From Whalleya microplaca (lineage: Eukaryota; Ascomycota; Sordariomycetes; Xylariales; Xylariaceae), in contig MU385724.1 of NCBI GenBank assembly GCA_022497155.1, positions 496,001 to 560,000 on the forward strand: a DNA stretch of 64,000 bases, in the 5' to 3' direction. The position numbers and the translations under genes were made by a program. Each line of letters opens with the position of its first letter. Within the stretch, counting starts at the first letter, position 1. The notes beneath the pieces are model-generated. The model was not told the DNA's origin, searched no databases, and saw only the letters and a program-made list of their open reading frames with translations. Shown here piece after piece: positions 1 to 62,621 of the stretch.

Positions 1-1717
1 GATATGTTTCCGACAAGCATCCCATTGCGGACATGGATTTGCTCGGCCCCTTATTCCTACGCTGACTTGTGACATTGCTACACACTTGTGCGGCTAGATT
101 GGGCTTCATGGGCTTCTAATAAGCGTGTCTTATCGCGTGGACAACTGCGTGATGCCTATGTCGAGGTTGTGTTTAAAGATCAGCGTCCGCAACGTGTTCG
201 TCTTGTCCACTATAAAATCAAACAAGCGCAGAACTTTAATCGTGCAGAATAAGCAACTTCACACACCATCCTGACTGCCTTGCTCTCTAACTTGGCTAGG
301 TTTCTACCATATCTCGCCTTGCAATGCCCAAGATCTAAGAGCCATACCTATCGACCCAAGTAGCGAATGGTCTTCTACAACTACGGTCTCTTTCCTAGAT
401 AGCTAAGAGTTCACAAATGCCACGCTGCGATGGGATGTTTATGGCCCGCCTACCTACTTCACGGCTATTAGTCGAGGCACTGAGCCCGATGTTGTCAAAA
501 GTGTATGCCAAGATCAACATCGTAACCTGAGTTAGCCACTTACGTAGAACTAGGTGAGACTAGCAACAACCCATAACATCTCCTATCTTGCCGCCGATGG
601 ACGGCATGGATATACCACTACCCTCGCTAAACTGAAGAACGGGCATTCCATCGACTTAAGTAAGTTGAATTCGGTTGAGGTTGAAGTAGACATAGAAATA
701 GACTGTCGACGCAGGAGCACGAGTAAGACAGATTTTTGATCCAGTATACAACACTAGGTCCGAGTTACGTAAGTTCACCTCTCGGGCTCTCTTCTACCAT
801 ACTAGTTGTCATATTTTTTATAAAAAGTTCCAAGTATTATATGATAATTATCTTATATATTTTACTATATGTTACGGGTTTATTTTATTATAATATTTAT
901 GCGGTGACTATCCCGCATATATGAAAAAAAGCCGTACGCCTAGACAATTTCTATTCATAACTCCCTTGCTATTGTGGGTGGTCTGTGCGTCCCTGCCTGT
1001 CAGCTTAAGGAATCCATTACCTAGTCACATGGAGTTCACCCTCCATCATTAATACAACATCCATACCACCCCCCTTACTTCACTATCAACAATCCACACA
1101 TGTACATAGTTAACTAGATCTGAAATTATTACGTAGCTACGCATGTAAGAACTGTATCTATCCGCTAGGCGTCTCGGTAGAATCGGCATCCCGCCTCTGC
1201 CGTCTCGCGACATATTATCAGATGCTAGACAGGTGGCGGCGGGTGGCTACGGAGGTACCTATTGACCCGATCGATCGCGGGGTACCCCGAGGCCAAATCT
1301 ATAGGTAAGGCACTAAGCAGCTCCGAGCTCGGGGGTCCTTGCTGCGGCTCTGGCGGGGTTCCAAACTTCAATTCGCATGTGTAAGCCGCGAGCAACATAA
1401 TACCTAGTTGGGCAAACACCCGAGGTGAGATTGAAGGTTCATTCGCCGCCACATGTCGGGGCTAATGATTTGCGGTGTGCGTCGCGTTTTGTTCAATTGA
1501 TCTAATTAGGATTGTTGGATAGCAATTGATTTCATCTCTAGTCGCGGCGAGCAATGGGAAGGAGATGTGAGACAGATCGTTTAATCCATGAAAACGTCCA
1601 CGGCGACGTTTCTGGCGGTTCATGATTTTATTACTTTATATAGGTCCCGAGACTCTAATAACCAGGCTAAATTAAATTACGTGTCCTCTCCTCCATCTAA
1701 ACAAATCTTTATCTTCT
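1..1717. other. Gene-poor 5' end of window
   Basis: No complete gene is supported. A short open stretch at about 70-252 (+) has fairly even codon use and ends in TAA at 250-252, but it lacks an ATG after the preceding stop and I do not recognise it. It could be the last exon of a gene or a decayed fragment. The part at about 790-930 is strongly AT-rich and resembles decayed, repeat-induced-mutated DNA. Confidence 0.4.
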
Positions 1718-24774: not shown

Positions 24775-24926
24775 GGAACGATAGCTCAGTGGTAGAGGTT
24801 AGCATTTACCCCAATTCCCGAAGTTCCGGGTTTTCTTATTTCATCTCTAACGATTGCACAGCGAAGGATTGCAGTCATGCGTAACAAGTTATCCTTAGGT
24901 CGCCGGTTCGATCCCGGCTCGTTCCT
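24775..24926 (+). tRNA. tRNA-Cys(GCA) with two insertions (D-stem and anticodon loop)
   Basis: The acceptor stem pairs 7/7 (24775-24781 with 24919-24925). D-stem GCTC is at 24784-24787 and GAG at 24795-24797. The anticodon stem AAGGA (24864-24868) pairs with TCCTT (24892-24896), and the T-stem GCCGG/CCGGC has loop TTCGATC. Anticodon GCA is at 24871-24873. The discriminator T at 24926 is the U73 typical of tRNA-Cys. An ordinary 16-nt intron follows position 37 (24875-24890). A second, 64-nt insertion (24798-24861) separates position 24 from C25. Removing it restores the G10-C25 pair and gives a canonical 72-nt tRNA. The box A (TAGCTCAGTGG, 24782-24792) and box B (GGTTCGATCC, 24905-24914) promoters are intact. 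It could alternatively be a disrupted pseudogene. Confidence 0.85.
24798..24861 (+). other. 64-nt GT-AG insertion with branch motif inside the tRNA D-stem
   Basis: The insertion starts GTTAGC, ends TTGCACAG and contains CTCTAACG, with the CTAAC adenine about 11 nt before the terminal AG. This is the layout of the spliceosomal introns in this window's protein genes. Its boundaries could shift by two bases because AG is present on both sides, but only this placement gives GT...AG. A small CCCG/CGGG hairpin lies in the middle. Fungal nuclear tRNA introns normally sit only after position 37, so the position is abnormal. Confidence 0.7.
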
Positions 24927-24936
24927 GAGAACTTTC

Positions 24937-24949
24937 TTTTTTCTTTTTT
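24937..24949 (+). terminator. RNA polymerase III terminator of tRNA-Cys
   Basis: Two runs of six T (24937-24942 and 24944-24949) begin about 11 nt after the discriminator base, as expected for Pol III termination. They support active transcription signals for the tRNA gene. Confidence 0.75.
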
Positions 24950-54305: not shown

Positions 54306-57300
54306 TCAATTACGATGTAGGATATAATCGCTCTTCTCAGCCGCTAACAGACCTAATTGAGTAATGGTTGAATTTCCAAGTATCTGGACAACTGGCACCT
54401 CCGACCGAATCTCGGTTGAGAACCAATGCACAAGTTCCACAGCAACAAGTGAATCGACTCCAAAGGCGTGAGGCGGCCGATTGGTATCAATATCTTCCAC
54501 CGGAACGGCTAATGACCGTGCCAAACGCCTCGCTAGCAACGTCGCGATTACCATAGCCGCTTTGTCGAGCGACTCAGCTTCTCCAAGTTGAGAAGCAGAC
54601 GAGTCGGGCTGTACGGTGGTGCTTGTGGACTCTACGTCTTGTTCCATCTGGTACAGGTGACAGAACATTGGCATTCGCATCCATCCATGGTCTTGAACAA
54701 CACCGCCGCGCTTTACATAGGCTGGGGTTGTCAATGCACCGATAAGCTGAGTCTCCCAAGGGGAAGTGACACTCCGGCGCGGATTGCATGCATATTTCAG
54801 CATGAAATGTAGATCTTCTTCGCGCAAATACTTGTGATCAGTATATGTCATCGCTACAACTCGAGCCGCGTCGATTCGCTCTGCGATGTAGCCGATGCTA
54901 TCCAGAATCCCCAAGTCTAAGGATATGCATGGCTGCCCCTGAGAATAGCGAAGTCTCGCGAATGCGTCGAGAAATGAGCTGGCGGCAGCATAATTGCTTT
55001 GCGAGCTGGCGCCGTGAATGCCAGCAATCGACGAGAGGATGACGAAAAAGTCCATGTCAGGAGGAAGATTATGATGGAGGTTCCAGGTGCCTCTCACTTT
55101 AGGGTCGATCGAGGCCTGGAACTCTCGGAGAGTATAATCTTGGAAAATACGGTTCTGCAGCAACGGTTAGGTTGGATGAACTACAGTGTATAAATCATAT
55201 GGGGCCACTCGCCTCAATAACCATCGATCCATGTATGCAGCCTTTGATGGGAGGCATGCTCGTCCTAGCGTGTCGGAAGACAGCTTGTACAGCGTCTGAG
55301 TCAGTGATGTCGCATCTGGGAGCATACACGCAAACACCATTATTCTCGAGACTTGCGACGAGCTCCCTCGCAGCTTGAGTCTTGATGCCAGAGCGGGAAA
55401 GCAAGATAAGATGCCTTGCGCCGTGCCGAGACATCCAGGCAGCGGTGCTCCTCCCAATCCCCCCCAACCCACCAGTTATTAAATAGGTAGCGTTACTGCT
55501 AAATTCATAGTCCAACTCACTTTTTGGAATGACCTATTTACTAGTTAATCTAACCCAAGAGTACTCTTTTTAATGTGGAGTGTAAATTACCTTGATAATG
55601 TCTTCTCGCTCCCAATCGACCACAACTTTTCCGACATGTTGTCCTGTCTGGAGTAGTCTAAATGCCTCCTCAAATTCCGATAGCTTGAACACTGTGAGAG
55701 GATATGGTGCCTTATATTGCGTCTTTGACTCGTCCAGAGCTAATGATTGAACCTCATGCATTATTTTCTCCATCAAGCTCTCATTGTGCTTGCTAACAAC
55801 AGCGAGGTCAAGCGAGCAAAATGAAACATTGCGTTGGAACGGTTCCATGGGAAGGCTTTTGAATGTAGTGATATCTCGTTTGCCAATCTCAATAAACCTT
55901 CCAAATGTAGCAAGACATCTCCAGGTCTCAGTTAGAGCCTGGCCAGAGAGCGAATTCAGAACAACGTCGACGCCTTTACCACGCGTCCTTTGCATTATTT
56001 GCTGAGCAAAGGAAATGTGGCGACTTGAAAAGAATTGTTGAGCTTCGATGCCATATCGTTCCATCAAAAGCTGTTTCTTCTCGGGAGTACTGACAGTGAC
56101 ATATACTATCGCGCCAATATGCTGTGCTATCTGGACGGCAGCTTGGCCAACTGCTCCAGCTGCGGCATGGATTAGGATACTTTCGTTAGGCTTCAGCTGG
56201 GCCAAATGACATATGCCATATTGTGCAGTGGCATATGCAACGGGTATTGCGCTTGCCTCAGTAAAAGGCATGTAGTCTGGTATCTTCATAAGGTGAGAAT
56301 GTTTCGCACGAACATACGTACGAAAACTGCCATCTGTGATGCCGCACACCCTATCACCAGGACGGAAGGTTGTCCTTGAAGCCGAGCCTATCCATGTGAC
56401 GATACCAGCGAACTCCTGGCCGATGTGGTCATCCGCCACTTGATTCAAAGCAACCATGACGTCTTTGAAGTTCATCCCTGTTGCCTTAACAAGCACCTGG
56501 ACTTCATTGTCATGAAGTGTAAGTGATGGTGACGGACTCGAGACAAAATGGAATGAGTCAAGCTGCCCTGGAACAAAACGCAATTCCAGTGGATTCTCGG
56601 TCGATTCCCTCTCTTTAAATACGGCTGTTGTCTCAGGAAGTCCTCCGCTATTTTCAAAGTCTAGGAGCCTGTTGATATGAGGGGCTTCGACCACTCTGGG
56701 AATGTAGAAGGTTCCTGACTGCTCCAGTAAATCTGTCTCCAGCTGCTTAGGATGCACGTTGCAGCTTTGCTGAACAACACGCGAAATATCGGTAACGGCA
56801 GTGGGCCCTGGATGCACATTGAGATGAACGAAGCTGATATCTGGGGTTTCACGCATGATGGTTTTTCCAAACCCTGAGATCATGGATGATTCAGGCCTTT
56901 TTGGAACCTCCCCAGAGGAGTCGTTAACCCAAAATATTTTTCTAGAAGCCTTCACGATTCGCTGAAGAGCTCCAAACTGGACCTCAGTCATTTGATCCAT
57001 TATGGGATTCTCAAGTTCTATCAGCGAGATGCATTGCTCGTACGCGGAAGACATCAAGGCAAATGATTCGACCGAATGAATGTCGCAGACGTTCTTGAAG
57101 TTCGGAGCCAACCTTTTCTGCAGGGCAACAGCAACATCGTACTGCTCAGCTGTTTCTGTGATAATGACCGTCCTGGGGTTATCTACGTATTGCGTTGAGG
57201 ATGGCAAGCTGGACACCATGAGAGTCATCCCATGGCTCTCCTCAACGTCATCAGACAGCGATATTCGCAAGCCATCAAATCCGGCGCGAAACAGCGCGTC

Positions 57301-60300
57301 TTTCCAACTCTGTTTATTCAGAAGTGGTCCCGAAGTTCTGTAATCGTCCGAAGCTGTGATCTACGTAAGTAGCTGCGCGGGGCTTAAGTGGGGGTCTAGC
57401 CTACAAAGCCACCAGCCAGGGAGAACACCCGAGAAGCACGGTATAGTTGCCATTCGATGATTTGTAGGTTCCAAGAATATAAGCTGGCCACCACTATGTC
57501 ATAAATCAGCACATATGGATTCCTGGCGGTTCATCTTGAGCTCTTACGGTTTAAGTAACTTTCTAACGTTTTCCAACGTCTCTTCAATATTAGCCGTGGC
57601 ATGAAGCACCTATGAACGTCAAAATTGATCTAGGCAAGTCTAGAAAACCATATATATGATGTCTTGACTTACAGAAGCAGCAATTACAATGTCGTACGAG
57701 CTGAGATCGAAGCCTTGGCCCGCTGGATCACGTCCAATATCCAGAGTTTTAAACCTCATGTGGCTTAACAATGAAGCATACCGTCCCTGAGCCTTGACAA
57801 AGAAACTCGGTGAGATGTCAGTGAAGTCGTATCGGTTGAATCGTGGGGAAGAACCTGTGAACTTTCCTTGGCTTGAAAGGGTATCTAAGATGACGCTAGT
57901 GGTACCGCCCGTGCCTGCACCAACTTCAATGATATTGATATTGGAGTCCTTGTGTGCCAAGAGATCCATGTAAGCTGCAAGTCTATGGGATGCAAGGCTG
58001 AATAGCGGAGTTTGGTACAAACTTTCAGCAACACCGGTGTTGAACATTAGGTCAAGTGGATCGGTCTTCCCAGCGAGTATAGGTAGCAGGTTTTCCGCGA
58101 ACAATACGATATTGTTCTTTTCAGGTGAACTTGCTCTGTACTCGCTAATTAAGCGAGGACGAAGTTCGTCTTGATCGAACCCCGGCCAGTGTTCGATCAG
58201 CTCGGCTGTAGTCCCTTTTTCATGTTTGAGAAATCTCCTCGCCCATTGAACGTACTTCTGTAGATCAGGTTTTAAGATAACTGAGTCATCAGGCAGAGCC
58301 TCAAGCGCGTTAGACATAAAATGGCGGCAGATGATCTCCGTCTCCCTATCAATACCTTGGCCAGGCATACCACGCGTCTTTTGACAACAATACTCTTCTA
58401 TCTCGTGCTGGGATAAAAGGCTTATATCGGGCTTCCATTGGATCTGATGGAAAAGGGTCGTCAACTTGGGTGACTTATCTCTCTGCTGGCTGGCGATGTG
58501 AAACCCTGATAACCTACAACCGCGGAATATGACCATGGGGGTTTCTGTGACACTATCCATTGCAGTTACATCGCCATTCATGTAAGAAATGCCACGGTCA
58601 GTGATTTTACCGTAAAGAAGCATTGAGTCTTCGTCAAGTCCTCCCAATAAGCCACATGAGATGTATATATCAGAAAACCCTGTGGGAAACATGGTAGGCA
58701 AGCTGTGCCACGACTGGCGGGTAGCCGCGAAGAGTACATGTAAGAGACTATCAAGAGTCGATGGGTGAATGATGTGGTCGCGGAGCTCGTGTTTCTTCAC
58801 AAGTTGTGTCCACTTGTCGAAGGTGACTCGCCCTATAGCCTCGCTGGTTTCAGCGTTTACCGAAATTTCCTGAACTGTCTGGAAGCTCTTGCCAAAGTGT
58901 GCTCCTTGTTTGTGCAGGTCTTTATAGAACTGTACAGAGTCGATTTTGTCCCTGCAGCGTCGGCCGGCTTCTAAGAAACTGATATTGGACGCTTTAGAAA
59001 AGCAGCTATCTGTGGTACCCTCAGAAACCAGATCTGTGGCTGTATGTTGTACTACGGAAACTTGACCAGAGCAATGTAGTTTCCATTCATTTTCTGTAAC
59101 AGAGTATATCAAGAACTCCCAAGAAGGTTGACCCTTATCTGTTACGAGCCTAGCATGAGGGCGCATGTGGAGCTGTGTTTCGATTCCCTCTTCAGTGAGA
59201 GGTATAACTAAAGCACCCATGATGCTAACGTCCCTCAGCCGGTATCCAATGATGGTTGGATTCTCTACAGTAAGAGCCCGGGCACCCTCAAGGACCATTG
59301 CGAGCATACCCGCTGCTGGGTATAAAACCATACCATCCATCTACACCGTGTTAGCTCTGTGGACAAAATAAGGTACAATATCCGAAATGCAAATACCTTA
59401 TGATCTATGATCCATGGAAGATCCGACTCTCGTATTGTAAATCGCCATTTGGGCTCAAGGGGATTCCAATCAGTAGAGGGGTTTCCAAGAAGCTCATGTC
59501 GTGGTGTCTCGCGAAAACGGAGGTTTCTGGATAACCTGCTTTCAAGCCAATAGGTGTTTAAATGATTGAAGGAATAATGAGGAAGATTTACGAGCATCTT
59601 TGGCTTACGGTAACTGTTGGGGTAACTATTTGCAGCCTCAATACCGACCGGATATCCATGAATCGTGAGTCTCCCTACCATCTCCTTCGCTACCTTGATC
59701 GAAGGCGTGTTGCGGCGTAGGACATGGTCGTATACGTAGTCTTTTCTGTCGCCCAGGATTTGCTGAACAGGTTTGCGTAGTGTTGGATGGGGACCGACTT
59801 CGATCATGTAACGTGATCCTGTCGACTGCTGTCCGGACAACGATGATACCATAAGTTCAACTGCTTCGGAGAACCTTACTCTCGAAACCAAGTTTGAGAC
59901 CCAATAACTTGCCTGGAGTAAATCTTCGTTTGGCACTATCGACCTTGAAACGGATGACACGAAAATGGGTTCAGATAGGCTGGGAGTTTGTGACCTAGGG
60001 GCCAAATACCCCTCAAGACTCTCTGTGTAGCTGTCTGCGACCTGGAGCATTTGAGGCGAGTGGTAGGCGACGGGAACATCAAGTTTCCGTGCGAAGATAT
60101 TGTTGGATTGTAACCGGACAGCAAGCTTGTCGATATATGTTTCAACTCCAGATACCGTTGTGCTTTCACAACTATTGATACAGGCACATGTCAAGATGCT
60201 TTCATCTTCTTCACCAACGACAGCGACAATATGCGGCCTCAGGTCGACTTCAGACAATCCAACAGCAAGCATCCCCCCTTTAACAGAGTGTGGATCTGCG

Positions 60301-62621
60301 GAAAGCCTGACAACAGTTTCGCCCCTGAAATATGCAACACGCCACGCGGACTCTTTTGTGAGAGCTCCTGCGCAGTACGCGGCAGCGATTTCCCCAGATG
60401 AATGGCCCACCACCGCTTGTGGCGTGACGCCCCAGGATGCTAGCAGATCGACGAGAGCAACTTGGAGTGCGGTGCATAGAGGCTGGGCAAGTCTTGGGCT
60501 GTTGATGCCAGAGGATGATGGAGATGCGCACAGTTCCCCTTCGGTTCATTAGCACATTATAAGTGATAGTGGACACAGTTCAACACTCACCTAGCAGAGA
60601 CCAAGTAGAACCGAGCGAATGAAAATAGCTGTCTGCTTGTTCAAGGCTCTCCCTGAATATGTGGTACACGAGTAATTCCGTGCCCATCGATGCCCACTGT
60701 GCACCTTGGCCTGTGAATACAAACTGTATCGTGGGACTCCCAGAAGTCCGTACTGGTCTTTCGGTCATGCCTGAAAGGTTCCTTCGAAGATGTTCAATTG
60801 AATGGCTTAGAATAAAAGATTTCCAAGGATGCCGACTTCGCTTATTGCTTAGTGTAAATGCAAGGTCGGCTAGGTACTGGGTACTGGCGTCGGCAATTTG
60901 ATGAAGATGGCTTTCCAAAGCAGTGGCCTGTCGTTGGATACCATTCTCGTCTGCCGCGGAGACAACGAATAGGAAAGGAGATTCTTTCGATACACCACAC
61001 TTCCCTGGCAGTTGGAGTGGCTCGTTGGAAGAATACATATTATTGTTTCTCGAAACGGTGTTATGGAGTCCCTGTAAACCCGCAGCTTGCAAATAATGAA
61101 GAGCATCATCAACTACGACGTGGGCGTTCGTACCACCAAACCCGAAACTGTTTGCAGAAGCTCGTCGCAATCCATCCCCACGCCAATCTTCAGCAGTCAT
61201 TGGGAACTAAAGCAATAAGAGAATTGTCTGGAATGTTAGGGATGTTGCTCAGCTTACCTGCAAGTGCCACTGGTCGGCGTCTATTGCTGGATTTAGATGG
61301 TTTAACAGGGCGACGGGAGGAACTTTAGCTCTTTCAAGCATGAGGATTATTTTGATTAGCCCAGCTATCCCCGCCGTTCCCTCTAGATGGCCGATGTTGG
61401 CCTTGACCGAACCAACGAATAGGGGATTATCCAAGTTACGATGCTCTGAGAACGCCAAGCTGATCCCTTTGGCTTCGATTGGATCTCCCAGCGAAGTTCC
61501 AGTTCCGTGCGCTTCGAAATAACCCGTAGAATGGAAGTCAAACCCCACTTTTTCGTATGCCTTCCGGATGAGGGCAGCCTGGGCAGTTGAACTAGGCTGC
61601 GAGATCGATGGGGTACGTCCGTCTTGATTCACCGCCGTGCCGCGGATGACGGCACGAATGATATCCCCATTTTCAAGGGCCTTCGACAATCGCTTGAGTA
61701 CGATAACTCCAACACCCTCACCTCTACTATAGCCGTTTGCTCGTTCATCAAAACTATAGCACTGGCTATCTGGCGAAAGAAAATTCAGCCTTGAGAGTGG
61801 CACAGACATTGATCTTGGTTCAAGTTGTAATTGGACGCCACAGACAAGGCTCTGAGGAAGGGAGCGGGTTAGCTTTCAGTATAGCTCATGGGAAACATAG
61901 TTTATACCATTTCAGACTCCCCTTGGAGCAGACTTTGACAAGCTAAATGGAGGCCGGTAAGGCTGCTCGAACAAGCGGTATCAAGCGAGATGCTTGGACC
62001 CCGAAAGTCGTAGAACCAACTGAGACGATTGGACAGCATGGACGACGAAATTCCAGTTGCTTGGTATTTAGCATTTATCTCATCATCGTTGCCGTACAGT
62101 GACGAATATTCAGCAATAAGATTCCCAACAAATACGGACGTAGAACTCCCCCGTACAGCCTCCAGAGGCTGTCCAGCTATTTCTATTTAGCTGAAGGAAC
62201 TAGTGCTTTTTCAGATGATTGCCTTACCAGACTCTAGAGCATGGTAACTAGTCTCCAACAACAAGCGTAGTTGAGGGTCCATGGCTTTAGCTTCTGTGCT
62301 GCTAATGGCAAAGAACGGTGCATCGAATGCAGCGATGTCGCCCGTTAGATAATGACCACCGCGGCAAGCCACCTGCAATGTCATTAGTGGGGTAATGTCT
62401 GGGAACATGACTTCGCTAAGCCTCACAGTGTCTTGTCGAGCCTGATCCAGGTCGTGATGACCGTTAGCGTTGTAGCGAGTCTCTGGTACCTCCGTCATTG
62501 TCGAGATGCCCTCGCTTATGACTTTCCAGAAAGCATCATCGGACACAGTGTCCTGGGGGAAGCGGAAGGAGAAGCCAACAACAACTACAGGGTCCTCCCG
62601 GACATATTTGGGACCGGCCAT
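54306..62621 (-). CDS. Highly reducing type I polyketide synthase
   Basis: Eleven exons, complement(join(54306..55154,55213..55533,55591..57353,57405..57493,57548..57609,57673..59340,59397..60538,60591..61206,61258..61851,61908..62182,62228..62621)), 2590 aa. Domains in order: KS (DTACSSS Cys about 202, EAHGTGT His 338, NIGHLEG His 379), AT (GHSSGE Ser about 673), DH (IIDHKMDGMVLYPAAG His about 1006; HPSTLDSLLH), C-methyltransferase (EVGAGTGGTT about 1476), ER (IHAAAGAVGQAAVQIAQ about 2000), KR (GGLGGIG about 2224; SNYAAAS), ACP (GVDSL Ser about 2543). All catalytic motifs are present, so a reduced, possibly methylated chain is expected. There is no thioesterase or reductase, so release needs a partner. 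The KR intron (55155-55212) appears to use a GC donor (GAG|GCGAGT). Confidence 0.93.

What the first reader, a model, noticed from the sequence alone, without database searches (positions are those of the whole stretch)
24775..24926. tRNA-Cys interrupted in the D-stem by an intron with spliceosomal signals
Seen: removing 24798-24861 and the normal anticodon-loop intron (24875-24890) gives a perfect 72-nt tRNA-Cys with U73, a full acceptor stem and a G10-C25 pair that exists only after removal. The removed 64 nt has GT at its start, AG at its end and CTAAC about 11 nt before the AG, like the mRNA introns of this genome. Known: fungal nuclear tRNA introns lie after position 37 and are cut by the tRNA endonuclease; ectopic D-arm introns are described mainly in red algae and archaea. 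I know of no fungal tRNA with a spliceosomal-type intron. Inference: a reverse-spliced spliceosomal intron, or a tRNA needing two splicing machineries.
Basis: partly seen in the sequence, partly recalled or inferred. Interest (0 to 1): 0.93.

Follow-up and report, generated by a model that had tools for sequence, protein, structure and literature searches.

The report
Fungal tRNA-Cys genes with spliceosomal-type introns
In this fungus the genes found for an essential adaptor RNA (tRNA-Cys) are interrupted by what looks like an ordinary messenger-RNA intron, so making this tRNA probably needs two different splicing machines.

Summary
Removing 24798-24861 and the 16-nt anticodon-loop intron leaves a fully paired tRNA-Cys(GCA) with U73. 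Of 2247 possible GT...CTRAY...AG removals in the window, four give a tRNA, all at this place; 300 simulated windows gave 4 hits in 1,139,714 removals.

The finding is wider than first reported. A second tRNA-Cys gene (G000:C11:484171-484310) has a 57-nt GT-AG insert at exactly the same place. Its sequence has diverged but keeps GT, CTAAC 10 nt before the end, and AG, while exon stems mostly keep pairing through double changes. One of four tRNA-Lys(CTT) copies has a 62-nt insert in the T-arm with GTAAGT, TACTAAC and AG. No intact tRNA-Cys turned up in pattern searches that were not exhaustive. No register fits the strict bulge-helix-bulge of tRNA endonuclease.

Best reading: the spliceosome removes the D-arm intron, then tRNA endonuclease removes the anticodon intron. 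No RNA data exist here, and no related genome could be searched. Spliceosomal introns in fungal U6 and U3 RNA are the nearest precedent; my ten literature searches listed none in a nuclear tRNA.

The parts
24775..24797 (+). tRNA-Cys exon 1: acceptor 5' strand, D-arm up to position 24
   Evidence: ARAGORN on the spliced gene; RF00005 alignment
24782..24792 (+). A box (TAGCTCAGTGG), intact and upstream of the insert
   Evidence: sequence; A-box consensus recalled
24798..24861 (+). 64-nt D-arm insert between positions 24 and 25, GTTAGC...CACAG: spliceosomal-type intron
   Evidence: no second copy found in the genome
24847..24851 (+). CTAAC, putative branch site, 10 nt before the intron end; conserved in place in the second tRNA-Cys
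24862..24874 (+). tRNA-Cys exon 2: C25 to G37 with anticodon GCA
24875..24890 (+). 16-nt ordinary anticodon-loop intron (after position 37)
24891..24926 (+). tRNA-Cys exon 3: position 38 to U73
24905..24914 (+). B box (GGTTCGATCC)
   Evidence: consensus recalled
24937..24942 (+). T6 run, putative RNA polymerase III terminator, followed by a second T6 at 24944-24949
   Evidence: sequence

Best explanation
24775-24926 is a working tRNA-Cys(GCA) gene with two introns of different kinds. Inferred order: RNA polymerase III transcribes the gene from its internal A and B boxes; in the nucleus the spliceosome takes the 64-nt D-arm insert for an mRNA intron (donor GTTAGC, branch CTAAC, acceptor CAG) and joins position 24 to 25; only then does the D-stem form, so that the tRNA endonuclease and ligase can remove the 16-nt intron after position 37. 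The second tRNA-Cys gene of the genome has the same design, so all cytosolic tRNA-Cys found depends on the spliceosome. Shown: sequence anatomy, signals, same site in two diverged genes, mostly structure-keeping exon changes. Inferred: transcription, splicing, order of steps.
For: (1) Exact removal restores a fully paired tRNA-Cys. (2) A second tRNA-Cys (L110:211-350) has a 57-nt insert at the same position with GTATGA, CTAAC + 10 nt, AG, though the two inserts otherwise align little better than shuffles (97 of 2000 score as well). (3) The two mature tRNAs differ at 11 of 72 sites, with three pairs changed on both sides and kept (4-68, 50-62, 51-61), a fourth A-T to T-G, and one broken: both look selected as spliced tRNAs. 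(4) A tRNA-Lys(CTT) copy has a T-arm insert with GTAAGT, TACTAAC, AG; the three other copies found lack it. (5) Shuffled inserts: GT-AG with well-placed CTAAC in 1.2e-4, 5e-5 and 1.9e-4 of trials for the three. (6) Lengths 57-64 nt and signals resemble five protein-gene introns of the window, 54-89 nt, and the fungal consensus GTRWGT / RCTRAY / YAG, branch-acceptor distance 6-36 (PMC5832005, section 3.2). (7) No intact tRNA-Cys among 50 pattern matches in the fetched loci. (8) Predicted minimum-energy folds of the unspliced Cys genes lack the normal D-stem; the spliced ones fold as cloverleaves. (9) Precedent: the fission-yeast U6 precursor is spliced (passages of PMC10484740), and U3 introns are excised by the mRNA splicing machinery (passages of PMC5832005).
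Against: No RNA evidence and no comparison with related species. CysA donor fits GTRWGT at 4 of 6; the Lys acceptor is AAG, not YAG; CysA has T before CTAAC where the consensus has R. CysB has one A-C mismatch in the anticodon stem; its spliced fold is not exceptional (19 of 200 shuffles fold as well, z -1.39); and after removal of its insert ARAGORN reads it as tRNA-Ala(tgc) without the anticodon intron, so its Cys identity rests on alignment with CysA. The search for intact tRNA-Cys genes is by patterns, not exhaustive, and the one DNA search missed CysB. The assembly (114 contigs) may be incomplete.
Confidence: 0.84

Rival explanations
1. Disrupted pseudogenes: the inserts are dead insertions and tRNA-Cys comes from an intact gene not seen here.
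For: Yoshihisa 2014 (PMC4090602, section 5) notes that D- and T-arm insertions in eukaryotic tRNA genes mostly occur in one of many synonymous genes and are supposed pseudogenes. This could fit the tRNA-Lys copy, which has three intact sisters. CysB has one broken stem pair.
Against: Two diverged tRNA-Cys genes with the insert at the same site, stems mostly kept by double changes, intact A and B boxes and T-runs; no intact tRNA-Cys found within the limits of the searches. Decay would not keep GT, CTAAC and AG.
Confidence: 0.07
2. The D-arm insert is an ectopic intron removed by the tRNA splicing endonuclease through a bulge-helix-bulge motif, as in Cyanidioschyzon and archaea.
For: Such D- and T-arm introns are known, including insertions in tRNA-Cys of a nucleomorph (PMC4090602 section 5). 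The same gene has an ordinary endonuclease intron.
Against: In 10 of 10 equivalent registers of the three genes no four-pair central helix forms; best 3 of 4, in the Lys gene; relaxed forms were not tested. GT, CTAAC and AG are kept, which an endonuclease does not need.
Confidence: 0.06
3. A single long anticodon-loop intron with a long variable arm, the alternative fold that ARAGORN reports when introns up to 200 nt are allowed.
For: ARAGORN proposes it for both genes with introns of 62 and 55 nt.
Against: It needs a three-pair D-stem with two G-U pairs, a mismatched anticodon stem and a long variable region, and puts the intron before the anticodon; the two-intron reading gives full stems (CysA) and aligned exons.
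Confidence: 0.02

Closest known systems
Spliceosomal (mRNA-type) introns of fungal U6 snRNA and U3 snoRNA genes
   Same: GT-AG intron of mRNA type with CTRAY branch site inside a small structured non-coding RNA, the U6 precursor being a polymerase III transcript; PMC5832005 states that U3 and U6 were so far the only small structured RNAs known to be often interrupted (passage).
   Different: Here the host is tRNA, which also carries an endonuclease intron. The fission-yeast U6 intron sits near catalytic nucleotides of a spliceosomal RNA (passage of PMC10484740); tRNA is not part of the spliceosome (recalled).
Non-canonical tRNA introns of archaea, Cyanidioschyzon merolae and nucleomorphs
   Same: Insert in the D- or T-arm of a tRNA gene, in some cases together with an intron at 37/38.
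   Different: Those are described as BHB substrates of tRNA endonuclease (C. merolae, archaea) or of unknown mechanism (nucleomorph; 3-24 nt) (PMC4090602 section 5; passages of PMC3978253); here no strict BHB, and GT-AG with a branch site.
Canonical eukaryotic tRNA introns after position 37
   Same: Present in the same gene (24875-24890) and in many tRNAs of this genome.
   Different: Position, length and splice signals of the D-arm insert differ.

Membership tests
Spliceosomal (U2-type) intron | GT...AG ends in a register that restores the host RNA | tested here: met
   All three inserts
Spliceosomal (U2-type) intron | Branch-site motif (RCTRAY) at 6-36 nt from the acceptor (PMC5832005) | tested here: met
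   CTAAC 10 nt before the end in both Cys inserts (CysA with T in place of the leading R), 12 nt in Lys
Spliceosomal (U2-type) intron | Donor close to GTRWGT | tested here: inconclusive
   6 of 6 for Lys, 5 for CysB, only 4 for the window's CysA; five protein introns of the window 4-6
Spliceosomal (U2-type) intron | Acceptor YAG | tested here: inconclusive
   CAG in CysA, TAG in CysB, but AAG in Lys
Spliceosomal (U2-type) intron | Removal by the spliceosome through a lariat | not testable with these tools
   No RNA data
tRNA-Cys(GCA) | Cloverleaf, GCA anticodon, U73 | tested here: met
   for the window gene; CysB by alignment only, one stem mismatch
Functional polymerase III gene | A box, B box, T-run terminator | tested here: met
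   A and B boxes intact and a T6 or longer run after each of the three genes; box consensus recalled; transcription itself not testable
BHB tRNA intron | Two 3-nt bulges separated by a 4-bp helix at the junctions | tested here: not met
   10 of 10 registers lack the central helix; relaxed forms not tested

The most novel reading that the evidence does not exclude
In this fungal lineage all cytosolic tRNA-Cys passes first through the spliceosome and then through the tRNA endonuclease, through an intron older than the divergence of its two tRNA-Cys genes, and tRNA genes there still gain spliceosomal introns (tRNA-Lys T-arm). Supply of an essential tRNA is thereby tied to mRNA splicing capacity.
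Probability: 0.72. Interest if true: 0.94.

Novelty: new variant of a known kind. Interest (0 to 1): 0.91.

Why it matters
tRNA splicing and mRNA splicing are taught as separate systems. A tRNA whose body is rebuilt by the spliceosome would join them in one molecule, extend the small-RNA hosts of spliceosomal introns from U6 and U3 to tRNA, give natural cases of spliceosomal introns in RNAs that are never translated and probably never capped, and make intron gain by reverse splicing testable in related species. Practically, this gene is missed by ARAGORN at the tool's settings and by Rfam at its threshold, so genomes annotated as lacking a tRNA may hide such genes.

Tried and rejected
RF00005 over the genome gave 61 matches but scored only 63 of 1595 candidates and did not list the window's own gene, so it is not a census. 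The spliced tRNA-Cys as DNA query found only the window's third exon and missed CysB: weak evidence of absence. Neither the window insert nor the Lys insert has another copy at the sensitivity of the DNA search (the CysB insert was not searched), so no donor intron or introner family was seen. The one U6 match of this genome has no intron. Model R1 could not be run on this genome; on the window and L108 it matched the 5' part of the Lys gene and split the window gene into two weak matches. A tRNA-Trp pattern gave 31 hits; 7 were fetched, none a tRNA by Rfam or by eye; the pattern was stricter than needed (purine required after position 37), so Trp stays open. Patterns for further D-arm and T-arm cases gave 23 and 4 hits: the two Cys genes, the Lys gene and 24 others, of which 10 were fetched and gave no tRNA in the removal scan. 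That scan over 131 fetched loci (overlapping copies included, 9134 removals) gave 65 passing removals; those outside Cys and Lys are removals next to or inside already intact tRNAs. Search for intact tRNA-Cys: T32 patterns 53 + 61 hits, of which 105 of 114 rows were filtered for Y48/R46 and 26 kept (the 9 dropped rows were known tRNAs, three repeat rows and one overlapping row); C32 pattern 114 hits, 100 listed, 92 of those filtered (7 rows of one repeat and one overlapping row left out), 22 kept. All 48 were fetched. One search examined 50 pattern matches in these and control loci (the best 25 printed): only CysA and CysB combine a full T-stem, at least 4 of 5 anticodon pairs and a 7-of-7 acceptor stem; the D-arm was not part of that test. 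A tRNA-Cys with a 4-nt variable loop, a long anticodon intron or an unusual T-loop would be missed. The sigma-70 scan is irrelevant to a fungus.

Full report
Observation. Positions 24775-24926 hold a tRNA-Cys(GCA) gene in three exons. The ARAGORN tool finds no tRNA in the window as it stands, and Rfam at gathering thresholds finds nothing in the window; with permissive filters RF00005 aligns end to end at 40.6 bits with insertions of 65 and 19 nt in its alignment. Removing 24798-24861 gives a tRNA-Cys with 7-bp acceptor, 4-bp D, 5-bp anticodon and 5-bp T stems, U73, and a 16-nt intron after position 37.

Chance. I removed every GT...AG stretch of about 47-108 nt with CTRAY near its end from both strands of the window and asked ARAGORN for a tRNA across the junction: 2247 removals, four passing, all at this place, of which 24798-24861 gives the complete tRNA-Cys; three Markov controls gave 0 of 9027. 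With slightly wider length limits, 300 first-order-Markov windows gave 4 hits at 3 places in 1,139,714 removals. Keeping the exons and shuffling the insert, GT-AG with CTAAC 9-25 nt from the end occurs in 1.2e-4 of 100,000 mononucleotide shuffles, all equivalent registers allowed.

Organism. The neighbouring glutaryl-CoA dehydrogenase and SYS1 genes are 100% identical over the matched part to proteins named from Whalleya microplaca (the SYS1 name is cut off at Whall), a xylarialean ascomycete. A further search, with a NADPH oxidase gene, had its best hit at 97% in another Xylariaceae. The genome G000 has 48.1 Mb in 114 contigs. Five introns read from these three genes by matching the proteins start GTGAGT, GTAAGT, GTTAGT, GTAAGT, GTTCGT, contain CTAAC, CTAAT, CTAAC, CTGAC, CTGAC and are 54-89 nt long. 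The window's insert is of that kind.

Second tRNA-Cys. A pattern for the Cys anticodon loop followed by a T-loop led to G000:C11:484171-484310 (L110:211-350). It is a tRNA-Cys with a 57-nt insert between the same two positions: GTATGA ... CTAAC + 10 nt ending TTAG. Rfam does not report it even at E 0.01, nor does the ARAGORN tool. Aligned with the window gene, exons agree; the inserts share the GT, the CTAAC and the AG, elsewhere only scattered bases, and a global alignment of the inserts is little better than shuffles (97 of 2000 reach it). The mature tRNAs differ at 11 of 72 sites. Three pairs changed on both sides and still pair (4-68, 50-62, 51-61 in sequence numbering), one went A-T to T-G, one broke (A-C in the anticodon stem). 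This is what two old, separately evolving genes under selection for the spliced tRNA would look like, with an intron evolving freely apart from its splice signals. Against: the broken pair, the unexceptional folding energy of spliced CysB (19 of 200 shuffles as good, against 3 of 200 for CysA), and ARAGORN's reading of spliced CysB as tRNA-Ala(tgc) without an anticodon intron.

tRNA-Lys. Of 61 RF00005 matches I fetched 60. One, C41:306943-307077, is a tRNA-Lys(CTT) whose T-arm is split between positions 52 and 53 by 62 nt starting GTAAGT, with TACTAAC and ending GAAG. The three sister copies found lack it. Its stems still pair in the RF00005 alignment. The chance figure by shuffling is 1.9e-4. 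Insert and exon together rebuild the sequence GGTTCGACC, so the B box survives. This copy has intact sisters and could be dispensable. The acceptor AAG is off the YAG consensus.

Is there an intact tRNA-Cys? Three patterns covering T32 and C32 loops, a filter on variable-loop bases and a stem test on 48 fetched candidates plus controls left only the two split genes. Limits: 14 of the 114 C32 hits were not listed, rows of repeats were dropped, and unusual variable loops or long anticodon introns would escape. tRNA-Trp was also not found, so the census is open, not complete.

Mechanism. In the predicted minimum-energy folds of the two unspliced genes the normal D-stem is absent, and eukaryotic tRNA endonuclease is thought to measure from the tRNA body (PMC4090602, section 5). 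Hence the order proposed: spliceosome first, endonuclease second. That a polymerase III transcript can be spliced is known for U6 of fission yeast (passages of PMC10484740). U3 introns are reported to be excised by the mRNA splicing machinery in one species, the vast majority of Pezizomycotina studied there have U3 introns, and that paper calls U3 and U6 the only small structured RNAs so far known to be often interrupted (passages and section 3.2 of PMC5832005). A bulge-helix-bulge at the D- or T-arm junctions was tested in all 10 equivalent registers; none has the four-pair central helix. Relaxed forms were not tested.

Prior art. Ten searches of the paper library, one of them on the organism, listed no report of a spliceosomal intron in a nuclear tRNA that I could see from titles, abstracts and the passages read. 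I read PMC4090602 section 5 and part 1 of section 18, passages of PMC3978253, PMC8450103, PMC13149111, PMC4035089, PMC10484740 and PMC5832005, and section 3.2 of the last. The library holds open-licence papers only, and the U6 intron survey (PMC4829304) was not held. So 'not reported' is limited to that.

Verdict. A real feature, more frequent than first described, best read as a spliceosomal intron in an essential tRNA. What is missing is RNA evidence and the state of the same genes in relatives.

Noticed in passing
L010, L011, L012, L066/L108 (tRNA-Lys(CTT) loci), first ~40 nt after the tRNA: The four tRNA-Lys(CTT) genes share a 3' trailer (CAATTCCTGACGC-like) with a short hairpin whose stem varies with partly compensating changes (2 of 7 predicted pairs changed on both sides in a sequence, two pairs with one broken or gapped), before a T-run: a possible structured tail or fused small RNA.
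   Followed up: partly
G000, RF00005 matches and pattern: No tRNA-Trp, Phe or Gly(GCC) appeared among the 60 loci read by ARAGORN. The search is not exhaustive, but these may also be split.
   Followed up: partly
L010-L069: The isoacceptors seen have one to four copies each and many have an anticodon-loop intron: within this incomplete list, a small, intron-rich tRNA set for a 48-Mb fungal genome.
   Followed up: no
window 54306-60413: ORFs on the minus strand look like pieces of a polyketide synthase (translations); read by eye only.
   Followed up: no
G000, C16:382864-383218 and contigs C4, C21, C39, C54: A repeated motif CTGCAGTGAGTAATAAAGCGAGTTAGGTTCGATTC, with near copies elsewhere, recurs and carries a B-box-like end; possibly a tRNA-derived or other repeat.
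   Followed up: no
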